NCBI GenBank assembly: GCA_902806175.1
Contig: CADCVQ010000030.1
Span: forward strand, 1 to 33,925
Direction of reading: 5' to 3'
DNA length: 33,925 nt
DNA from: an uncultured Solirubrobacteraceae bacterium
GTDB lineage: Bacteria; Actinomycetota; Thermoleophilia; Solirubrobacterales; Solirubrobacteraceae
Made by a program: the position numbers and the translations under genes. The notes below the pieces were generated by a model. It was not told the origin of the DNA. It searched no databases and was given only the letters and a program-made list of their open reading frames with translations. This document shows, one piece after another, positions 12,991 through 14,905 of this stretch; the stretch's first letter is position 1, and each line of letters begins with the position of its first letter.

Positions 12991-13959
12991 ATGCGTCGCG
13001 CCGCCGTCATGTTCTCCCTCTTGGTGGCGGCGGGCGCACCGACCGCGGCCGCGCGCGCCCAGGCACCTGCCGCGCCGCCGCCGCCGGCCGACGCGCAGAT
13101 GACGCTGAAGGTCGAGCGCGTCGGCGGAGCGCGCGCCACCGTCCTCAGCGGGTCGAGCGTTCGGGTCCGCGGGACGCTGCCCGTGTTCGCTGCGGGCGAG
13201 ACGGTGACGGTGCGGTTCTACATCGCCGGCAAGAAGCGCTTCGCGCGCCGCGTCGCGCTGCAGCCGCAGGCGGACGGAACGGGCGCGATCGCGCTCTCCT
13301 ACAGGCCGCGGCGGGTCGGCACGATGAAGATCACGGCGACGCATCCCGCGTCGCCGGCGATCAACGTCTTCATCGCGAAGGCGCCCGCGGTCGACGTCAT
13401 CCCGCGCCGCGTCACGCCCAGCAGCGGCGCAGCATCGATCCGTGCGCTGCAGCGCCGGCTGCGCCGGCTGGGCTATGTGACCGGGGCGCGCGGCTCATTC
13501 GACGGGCGCACGGCGCGCGCTGTCCTCGCGTTTCGCAAGGTCTCGGGGATGGCGCGCACGACGAGCGCCTCGACGGGCGTCATGCGGGCGATCGCGCGCG
13601 GCAAGGGCCGCTTCGTGATCCGCTTTCCCAAGCACGGCCGCCACATCGAGGCCGACCTCTCGCGCCAGGTCATCGCCCTGATCCAGGCTGGTCGCGTGCG
13701 GCGCATCTACCCGGTCTCGTCGGGTGCCCCCAGCACGCCGACGGTGCAGGGCTCCTTCAAGGTCTACTCCAAGACGCCCGGCACGAACGCCAAGGGCATG
13801 GTCCACTCCGCGTACTTCATCCGCGGCTACGCGACGCATGGCTATCCGTCGGTGCCGGTCTACCCGGCCAGCCACGGCTGCCTGCGAGTGCCGATCCCCG
13901 ACGCGCTCAGCCTCTTTCGGTGGATCAAGATCGGGACCCCGGTCGACGTCTACCCGTAG
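12991..13959 (+). CDS. L,D-transpeptidase with peptidoglycan-binding domain (YkuD)
   Basis: 322 residues. A signal peptide (1-24, cleavage likely near ARA-QA) is followed by an Ig-like beta region (about 38-135). A type 1 peptidoglycan-binding domain follows (about 147-190, with LQRRLRRLGY and a TARAV helix), then a YkuD catalytic domain (about 207-321). The active site is complete: His283 in THGY and the SHGC box with His295 and Cys297, followed by Arg299. The enzyme forms 3-3 meso-diaminopimelate cross-links or attaches proteins to peptidoglycan outside the membrane and is carbapenem- rather than penicillin-sensitive. With the PBP1 gene 3 kb away, the region encodes both cross-linking chemistries. 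The last 10 bp overlap the convergent small membrane protein gene. Confidence 0.93.
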   Translation: MRRAAVMFSLLVAAGAPTAAARAQAPAAPPPPADAQMTLKVERVGGARATVLSGSSVRVRGTLPVFAAGETVTVRFYIAGKKRFARRVALQPQADGTGAIALSYRPRRVGTMKITATHPASPAINVFIAKAPAVDVIPRRVTPSSGAASIRALQRRLRRLGYVTGARGSFDGRTARAVLAFRKVSGMARTTSASTGVMRAIARGKGRFVIRFPKHGRHIEADLSRQVIALIQAGRVRRIYPVSSGAPSTPTVQGSFKVYSKTPGTNAKGMVHSAYFIRGYATHGYPSVPVYPASHGCLRVPIPDALSLFRWIKIGTPVDVYP

Positions 13960-14336
13960 CGCGGACGCGCGAGGGGGCTGCCGCGCCCCTTGGCATAGCG
14001 CGAGGCGAAGCCGAGCAGGAAGCCGTACACGAGCAGTCCCAGGAGCGCCGGCACGCCGCGCCGCACCCAGCGGCTGTCGGCGTTCGCGGAAACGGCGGCG
14101 AAGGGCCGCAGCAGCACGTCGTTGGCGTCGTCGATCGCCTCGCGGACCGCGCCGTTGCGCCGCTCGCGCTCGCGCTCGCCGGCGGGCGTCGGGTCGGCGG
14201 CGCGCGGATCGCCGGTGATCCGGTTGCGCGAGGCGTCCGACGCGCGGTCGATGTCGGCGACGGCGAACAGGATGAAGCCGCAGGCGACGATCAGGCTCAG
14301 GGCGATCGCGAGGAAACGCAGGAGACGTTCGGCCAC
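13950..14336 (-). CDS. Small two-helix membrane protein, unknown function
   Basis: 128 residues from GTG 14334-14336. One helix at the N-terminus (about 5-27) and one near the C-terminus (about 95-111) flank a charged, Arg/Glu-rich middle segment (about 30-75) likely to lie outside the membrane. I recognise no domain. Frame and composition are convincing because the hydrophobic segments are clean and the neighbouring frames are Arg-rich nonsense. It converges on the L,D-transpeptidase gene with 10 bp overlap and is divergent from pyrE across 20 bp. Confidence 0.65.
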   Translation of the reverse strand: MAERLLRFLAIALSLIVACGFILFAVADIDRASDASRNRITGDPRAADPTPAGERERERRNGAVREAIDDANDVLLRPFAAVSANADSRWVRRGVPALLGLLVYGFLLGFASRYAKGRGSPLARPRYG

Positions 14337-14341
14337 GCATC

Positions 14342-14348
14342 TAAGGTA
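14342..14348. promoter_or_regulatory. Shared bidirectional -10 element (TAAGGTA)
   Basis: The 20 bp between GTG 14336 (minus) and ATG 14357 (plus) contains TAAGGTA. Read forward it gives TAAGGT, 9 nt before pyrE. Read backward it gives TACCTT, 6 nt before the membrane protein gene. One TANNNTA block therefore offers a -10 box to both genes, and both transcripts would be leaderless. Confidence 0.42.
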
Positions 14349-14356
14349 GGCGAGCG

Positions 14357-14905
14357 ATGAACGCGCATGGACGATTGACCGACGAGCTGCGCGACCACGC
14401 GCTCGTCATCGGCGAGGTGACGCTGACGAGCGGGCGCAAGGCGCAGTACTACGTCGACGCCAAGCGGGCGATCCTGCGCCGCGCGGGCTTCATGGCGCTC
14501 GGCGAGCTGCTCGCCGCGCGCGCCGAGCAGTGGCGAGCGACCGCCGTCGGCGGCATGACGATGGGCGCCGACGCCGTCACCTGCGCCGCGCTGGCCGGCG
14601 GCGCCGACGTAAAGGGCTTCTTCGTGCGCAAGGAGGTCAAGCGCCATGGTCTCTCGCGGCGCATCGAGGGCCCGCTGCTGGCGCCCGAGGACCGCTGCCT
14701 CGTCGTCGAGGACGTCGTCAGCACCGGCGGCTCGACGGTCGCGGCGATCGAGGCGCTGCAGGAGGCCGGCCACGAGATCTGCGGTGTCGTCAGCGTCCTT
14801 GACCGCCTTGCCGGAGGCGGCGTGCGGATCGAGGCCGCCGCGGGCGCCCCGTACGCGGCGCTGGTCACGATCGACGACATCTACCCCGAGCGCCCCGACC
14901 GCTGA
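14357..14905 (+). CDS. pyrE: Orotate phosphoribosyltransferase
   Basis: 182 residues of a type I phosphoribosyltransferase fold. Orotate reacts with PRPP to give orotidine 5'-monophosphate, the fifth step of pyrimidine synthesis. Visible landmarks are the N-terminal LTSGRKAQYYVDAK stretch that contacts orotate (24-37), the flexible catalytic loop with FVRKEVKRHG (91-100), and the PRPP-binding signature LVVEDVVSTGGST (115-127). The gene stands alone, without other pyr genes. ATG 14357 is set by the family's short N-terminus and lies 9 nt after a -10-like box. Confidence 0.95.
   Translation: MNAHGRLTDELRDHALVIGEVTLTSGRKAQYYVDAKRAILRRAGFMALGELLAARAEQWRATAVGGMTMGADAVTCAALAGGADVKGFFVRKEVKRHGLSRRIEGPLLAPEDRCLVVEDVVSTGGSTVAAIEALQEAGHEICGVVSVLDRLAGGGVRIEAAAGAPYAALVTIDDIYPERPDR

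What the first reader, a model, noticed from the sequence alone, without database searches (positions are those of the whole stretch)
14337..14356. 20 bp divergent gap with one shared -10 block for pyrE and a membrane protein
TAAGGTA (14342-14348) reads TANNNTA on both strands, so the two opposite -10 boxes overlap on the same 7 bp. Both resulting transcripts would be leaderless. Symmetric -10 elements are known to give divergent transcription, but having two protein starts this close leaves no room for separate promoters and implies mutually exclusive initiation.
Basis: partly seen in the sequence, partly recalled or inferred. Interest (0 to 1): 0.52.

Follow-up and report, generated by a model that had tools for sequence, protein, structure and literature searches.

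The report
Shared two-way promoter before pyrE
In a family of soil actinobacteria, the pyrimidine gene pyrE and an uncharacterised membrane-protein gene start back to back only 20 bases apart and appear to share one seven-base promoter core that reads the same way on both strands; this is a clean, evolutionarily conserved case of a known kind of two-way promoter.

Summary
Start codons of pyrE (+, ATG 14357) and a two-helix membrane protein "P2" (-, GTG 14336) are 20 bp apart. TAAGGTA (14342-14348) gives TANNNT on both strands, with a 6-nt spacer to GTG and 9 nt to ATG. It is the only TANNNTA in the 33.9 kb window (14 expected from base composition). Comparative data support a shared -10. In 23 of 35 Solirubrobacteraceae loci with P2 upstream of pyrE, the 19-21 bp gap holds TANNNTA in place, while its middle three bases and flanks vary (11 heptamers, 6 genera). 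Base 7 matters only for the minus-strand -10. It is A in 24 of 31 loci with P2 and 0 of 26 without (first calling: 22 of 31 and 1 of 28; the exception has another divergent frame), and A in only 2 of 113 leaderless-type motifs sampled from two genomes. The same geometry recurs at UvrD helicase/inositol-phosphatase and HDAC/nadB pairs. Best reading: a symmetric-(-10) bidirectional promoter with leaderless (P2) and leaderless or nearly leaderless (pyrE) mRNAs. Strict leaderlessness of pyrE and mutual exclusion are inferred; no start site was mapped. New member of a known kind.

The parts
14337..14356 (.). 20-bp intergenic gap between the two divergent start codons
   Evidence: gap is 19-21 bp in all 23 loci with the shared heptamer, this one included
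14342..14348 (.). TAAGGTA, symmetric TANNNTA shared by both -10 elements
   Evidence: middle three bases vary among the 23 loci selected for TANNNTA
14342..14347 (+). -10 hexamer TAAGGT for pyrE, spacer 9 nt to ATG
   Evidence: TANNNT 6-10 nt before the pyrE start also in 26 of 53 family loci lacking P2
14343..14348 (-). -10 hexamer TACCTT for the membrane protein, spacer 6 nt to GTG
   Evidence: spacer 6-7 in the 23 selected loci
14357..14905 (+). pyrE, orotate phosphoribosyltransferase (182 aa)
   Evidence: found in 92 of 101 family genomes
13950..14336 (-). P2, 128-aa putative membrane protein of unknown function, GTG start
   Evidence: 39 of 101 family genomes; N-terminus conserved from the GTG in a six-protein alignment
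12991..13959 (+). YkuD L,D-transpeptidase gene, convergent with P2; abuts pyrE in many genomes that lack P2

Best explanation
The 20-bp gap is a minimal bidirectional promoter. One symmetric heptamer, TANNNTA, supplies the -10 element (-12T, -11A, -7T) in either direction, so the housekeeping sigma factor can load RNA polymerase facing pyrE or facing the membrane-protein gene. Positions 2 and 6 serve both directions, position 1 only pyrE, position 7 only the membrane protein. The minus transcript should start at the G of its GTG (leaderless); the plus transcript at or a few nt before the ATG of pyrE. Shown: the sequence, its geometry, and coupling of the minus-only base to the presence of a divergent gene. 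Inferred: actual start sites, leaderless translation, and that two polymerases cannot occupy the site together.
For: Geometry and rarity. TANNNT is enriched 6-10 nt before starts in samples of this genome and of G031 while four control hexamer classes show no such peak. 23 of 35 P2-pyrE loci keep TANNNTA in a 19-21 bp gap in 6 genera while the middle and flanking bases vary. Base 7 is A in 24 of 31 loci with P2 and 0 of 26 without (first calling 22 of 31 and 1 of 28), and A in only 2 of 113 leaderless-type motifs in two genome samples. G044, where P2 is no longer divergent from pyrE, has base 7 = G although its genus mate G029 has A. Shine-Dalgarno-like tetramers are found in the gap of only 6 of 23 loci on the plus side and 4 of 23 on the minus side. 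Same geometry at unrelated gene pairs.
Against: No transcript data. 12 of 35 P2-bearing loci do not have the strict shared arrangement; three of them have TANNNTT (L013, L075, L051), which weakens only the minus -10, and the rest have other arrangements. The relatives are not independent: on a pyrE tree the two traits change 7 and 8 times, but only 1 independent pair lies on well-supported branches, so the phylogeny-corrected test has no power. The 23 loci were chosen for having the motif, so invariance of its four fixed positions among them is by construction; the free test is base 7. In family f4 the divergent pair persists with other spacings and no evident shared motif.
Confidence: 0.85

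Rival explanations
1. Only pyrE is driven from this -10; the apparent minus-strand -10 is a by-product, and the membrane-protein gene is transcribed from a promoter inside pyrE with a leader.
For: TANNNT before pyrE is kept in 26 of 53 loci without P2, so the plus promoter does not need the divergent gene; TANNNT is itself half symmetric.
Against: Base 7, useless to pyrE, is A in 24 of 31 loci with P2 and 0 of 26 without, and A in 2 of 113 ordinary motifs; the spacer to the P2 start is 6-7 in the 23 selected loci.
Confidence: 0.07
2. The heptamer is the operator of a regulator acting on both genes, not a -10.
For: It is palindromic at its ends and sits between two divergent genes.
Against: Only TA and TA are constant and 11 different heptamers occur in 23 loci, which fits -10 readout and not a usual operator; the same geometry recurs at unrelated gene pairs; no dyad beyond the heptamer is evident among the 23 gaps (by eye).
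Confidence: 0.03
3. Phylogenetic inertia: the heptamer is simply inherited with the gene order and was never selected for two-way use.
For: Genera are few and the tree-corrected test has no power.
Against: Middle and flanking bases have diverged among the same loci while the outer bases have not; A at base 7 is absent where P2 is absent in g13, g19, g2 and in G044 of g8.
Confidence: 0.05

Closest known systems
Bidirectional promoters with a symmetric -10 element (Warman et al. 2021, cited within the papers read, not held; Warman et al. 2026 PMC12825309, abstract, introduction and discussion read; PMC10268837, passages read)
   Same: One -10 with reciprocal -11A/-7T on the two strands; the commonest start-site distance there is 18 bp, and placing each start 7 nt after the hexamer gives 14336 and 14354, 18 bp apart.
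   Different: Here both products would be leaderless or nearly leaderless mRNAs of two protein genes, so the core promoter fills the whole intergenic gap; start sites are not mapped; the -18T described for E. coli and Salmonella was not tested here.
Leaderless TANNNT promoters of Actinobacteria (Cortes et al. 2013 PMC3898074, passages read)
   Same: TANNNT -10, no conserved -35, 5' end within 5 nt of the start codon; that paper notes closely juxtaposed divergent promoters and leaderless starts for the divergent pair prpD/Rv1129c.
   Different: The passages read do not say that the divergent pair shares one -10; here one heptamer serves both and its conservation can be followed across genera.
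Divergent pairs UvrD-like helicase/inositol monophosphatase and HDAC/nadB in the same bacterial family
   Same: Same CAY-N5-TANNNTA-N8-RTG arrangement (families for one locus each).
   Different: Unrelated genes; found here by eye among pattern hits, not an exhaustive count.

Membership tests
Bidirectional promoter with symmetric -10 | -11A and -7T reciprocally paired so that one -10 reads on both strands | tested here: met
   TAAGGTA/TACCTTA at 14342-14348; 23 of 35 P2-bearing loci
Bidirectional promoter with symmetric -10 | Start sites on opposite strands, most often 18 bp apart | not testable with these tools
   Sequence allows 18 bp (14336/14354) or 21 bp if both are exactly leaderless; no transcript data
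Bidirectional promoter with symmetric -10 | Polymerase transcribes both ways from the site; shared -10 bases affect both transcripts | not testable with these tools
   Needs in vitro transcription or reporters
Leaderless mRNA promoter, membrane-protein gene | TANNNT about 6-7 nt before the start codon | tested here: met
   Spacer 6; spacer 6-7 in the 23 selected loci; genome samples peak at 6-7
Leaderless mRNA promoter, pyrE | 5' end within 5 nt of the start codon | tested here: inconclusive
   Spacer 9; within the shoulder of the sampled spacer distribution; predicted leader 0-4 nt, no 5' end mapped
Leaderless mRNA promoter, both genes | No conserved Shine-Dalgarno sequence | tested here: met
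   Tetramers in the gap of 6 of 23 (plus) and 4 of 23 (minus) loci; five of the six plus ones are the AAGG inside the heptamer of genus g1
Canonical sigma-70 promoter | TTGACA-like -35 at 16-18 bp | tested here: not met
   None found by scan; hexamers at 16-18 bp are unlike TTGACA

The most novel reading that the evidence does not exclude
In Solirubrobacteraceae a roughly 20-bp block, start codon-N5-TANNNTA-N8-start codon, is a reusable minimal divergence unit: several unrelated gene pairs (pyrE/P2, helicase/inositol phosphatase, HDAC/nadB) are held back to back by one symmetric -10 from which two leaderless or near-leaderless mRNAs start, so that gene order and spacing are locked by a promoter that has no other room.
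Probability: 0.5. Interest if true: 0.55.

Novelty: new member of a known kind. Interest (0 to 1): 0.45.

Why it matters
Bidirectional promoters have been defined mainly from start-site maps. Here evolution supplies the mutagenesis: one base that only the reverse promoter can use is usually present when a divergent gene is present and absent when it is not. That suggests a sequence-only diagnostic (base 7 of TANNNT) for two-way promoters in leaderless-rich, high-GC genomes, and gives a natural series for asking whether coupling pyrE to a neighbour has consequences.

Tried and rejected
Shine-Dalgarno reading of AAGG in TAAGGTA: among the 23 loci limited to genus g1; other genera have TAGGCTA, TAGACTA, TAGAGTA and so on. 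Canonical sigma-70 promoter with -35: none. Raw genome-wide counts of the pattern are not evidence by themselves: 69 of 101 family genomes match the TANNNTA pattern at the window's spacing, 46 of 101 at 5+6 spacing with no recurrent gene pair noticed by eye, and 65 of 101 match a TTNNNAA control; the useful figures are the rate per heptamer occurrence and recurrence at the same gene pair. Phylogeny-corrected test: no power. The rule that picks the plus -10 was changed once: one search allowed spacers 5-10 and TTG and mis-picked g15 loci such as L016 and L071; one search used spacers 6-10 and ATG/GTG. Both results are given. The one no-P2 locus with base 7 = A (L083, genus g3, TTG start) drops out; it has a 64-aa divergent frame 11 nt from the motif that reminds me, from recall only, of a carboxylate-amine ligase; Pfam gave nothing. 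Rows left out: 88 of the 92 genomes with a pyrE match were used; G053 (in-frame stop) and G027, G092, G098 (weak matches only) were not used for this.

Not done: structure prediction of P2; a full count of all spacings; any expression data. Paper Warman et al. 2021 is not held.

Full report
What is there. The window is contig C30 of a draft genome (4.12 Mb, 183 contigs). The closest named matches to its pyrE are mostly Solirubrobacteraceae MAGs. The reported gap 14337-14356 reads GCATCTAAGGTAGGCGAGCG. pyrE starts at ATG 14357 on the plus strand, and a 128-aa putative membrane protein (P2) starts at GTG 14336 on the minus strand. TAAGGTA at 14342-14348 yields TAAGGT with a 9-nt spacer to ATG, and on the other strand TACCTT with a 6-nt spacer to GTG. 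The protein starts look right: P2 homologues align from the same start codon in a six-protein alignment (one of the six was entered without its start codon), and pyrE alignments begin at query residue 1 in the nearest relatives.

Is it more than chance? TANNNTA occurs once in 33,925 bases, exactly in this gap; base composition alone predicts 14. In a 434 kb sample of the genome (window included) there are 11, of which 2 lie between divergent start codons 5-9 nt away on each side; in 400 kb of G031, 1 of 8. The 15 other symmetric heptamers reach 0-24 per 1000. Numbers are small, one of the three is the finding itself, and in another (L225) the left reading frame is only 52 aa because it runs off the contig end.

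Are leaderless promoters usual here? With a rough gene finder (591 ORFs from 800 kb of two genomes), TANNNT is enriched 6-10 nt before candidate starts, peaking at 6-7, while four control hexamer classes show no such peak. 112 of 591 ORFs have such a motif before one of their first four candidate starts. This resembles the leaderless TANNNT promoters mapped in M. tuberculosis (PMC3898074, passages read), where 'leaderless' covers 5' ends within 5 nt of the start codon.

Comparative test. pyrE was found in 92 of 101 family genomes. I read the upstream DNA of 88 of them; the other four were left out (G053 for an in-frame stop; G027, G092, G098 for weak matches only). P2 lies upstream of pyrE in divergent orientation in 35 of 88. 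In 23 of these 35 the gap is 19-21 bp and holds TANNNTA, 5-6 nt from the P2 start codon and 6-9 nt from the pyrE start codon, in genera g1, g4, g8, g9, g11 and g15. Eleven different heptamers occur; the middle three bases and flanks vary. Further g15 loci show the same TAGATTA block by eye (L272, L273, L275, L279, L280, L281). The informative base is number 7: it belongs to the minus -10 only. It is A in 24 of 31 loci with P2 and a recognisable plus -10, and in 0 of 26 loci without P2 (Fisher p 3.6e-10, ignoring relatedness). The first, cruder calling gave 22 of 31 and 1 of 28; the one exception has another divergent frame at the motif. In ordinary leaderless-type motifs of two genomes base 7 is C 61, G 40, T 10, A 2.

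Limits of that test. Genomes are related. On a pyrE protein tree of 57 loci P2 presence changes at least 7 times and base-7 A 8 times, but only 1 independent contrast lies on well-supported branches, so no phylogeny-corrected significance can be given. By eye, P2 is absent and base 7 is not A in g13 (next to g4), g19 (next to g11), g2, and G044 of g8. In G044 P2 is still present but on the same strand as pyrE (and coordinates), and base 7 is G. Of the P2-bearing loci lacking the strict arrangement, three with the P2 start codon close by have T at base 7 (L013, L051, L075), and others have different spacing or no recognisable shared motif. In family f4 the divergent pair persists with other spacings and no evident shared TANNNTA.

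How it most likely works. One symmetric -10 can be read by sigma in either orientation. The minus mRNA should begin at its GTG. For pyrE the 9-nt spacer (7-10 among the 23 shared loci; mostly 8-10 in loci without P2) suggests a start at the ATG or up to about 4 nt before it; with the canonical spacing the starts would be 14336 and 14354, 18 bp apart, the commonest distance reported for bidirectional promoters (PMC12825309 introduction; PMC10268837 passages). Mutual exclusion of two polymerases is a fair structural inference. Yet PMC12825309 (abstract, introduction, discussion) reports that basal activity is too low for competition at the promoters tested, so anticorrelated expression should not be assumed.

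A wider pattern. The exact spacing pattern CAY-N5-TANNNTA-N8-RTG has matches in 69 of 101 family genomes. Raw counts are not telling, since a TTNNNAA control matches in 65 of 101. But some hits recur at the same gene pair. I picked 20 places by eye and fetched them: 10 are a UvrD-like helicase against an inositol-monophosphatase-family gene in 7 genera (in one, L295, the second frame breaks after 80 aa), and 6 are a histone-deacetylase-family gene against L-aspartate oxidase nadB in 4 genera, the window's own genome included. Family names rest on one tested locus each; the others were judged from the translations. The remaining 4 of 20 are single pairs or have no second frame. Because I chose these 20 for recurring, the fraction is not an estimate.

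Verdict. A search for Solirubrobacter with leaderless gave one paper, unrelated by its title and abstract start, and searches for leaderless bidirectional promoters listed none whose title showed this arrangement; that is not proof of absence, since key papers are not held.

Noticed in passing
window 12991-14356 and L033, L035, L040, L043, L044, L049: A YkuD L,D-transpeptidase gene precedes pyrE in the same direction in much of the family (57 of 88 pieces hold a match). Where P2 is absent it often abuts pyrE, and in 6 loci its TAG stop codon is the TAG of the pyrE -10.
   Followed up: partly
L286-L295: Divergent UvrD-like helicase and inositol-monophosphatase-family genes share TAGGATA in a 20-bp gap in 7 genera.
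   Followed up: partly
L296 (G000:C79), L297, L298, L301, L302, L303: Divergent histone-deacetylase-family gene and nadB share TACGGTA or TACCGTA in a 20-bp gap; in L301 the heptamer lies nearer to nadB, in L302 nearer to the deacetylase gene.
   Followed up: partly
G000 sample, L207-L226 and window: TANNNTA is about ten times rarer than other symmetric heptamers of equal composition (11 against 95 TTNNNAA and 136 ATNNNAT in 434 kb).
   Followed up: no
L083 (genus g3): A different divergent reading frame begins 11 nt from TAGGGTA upstream of pyrE; the frame breaks after 64 aa.
   Followed up: partly
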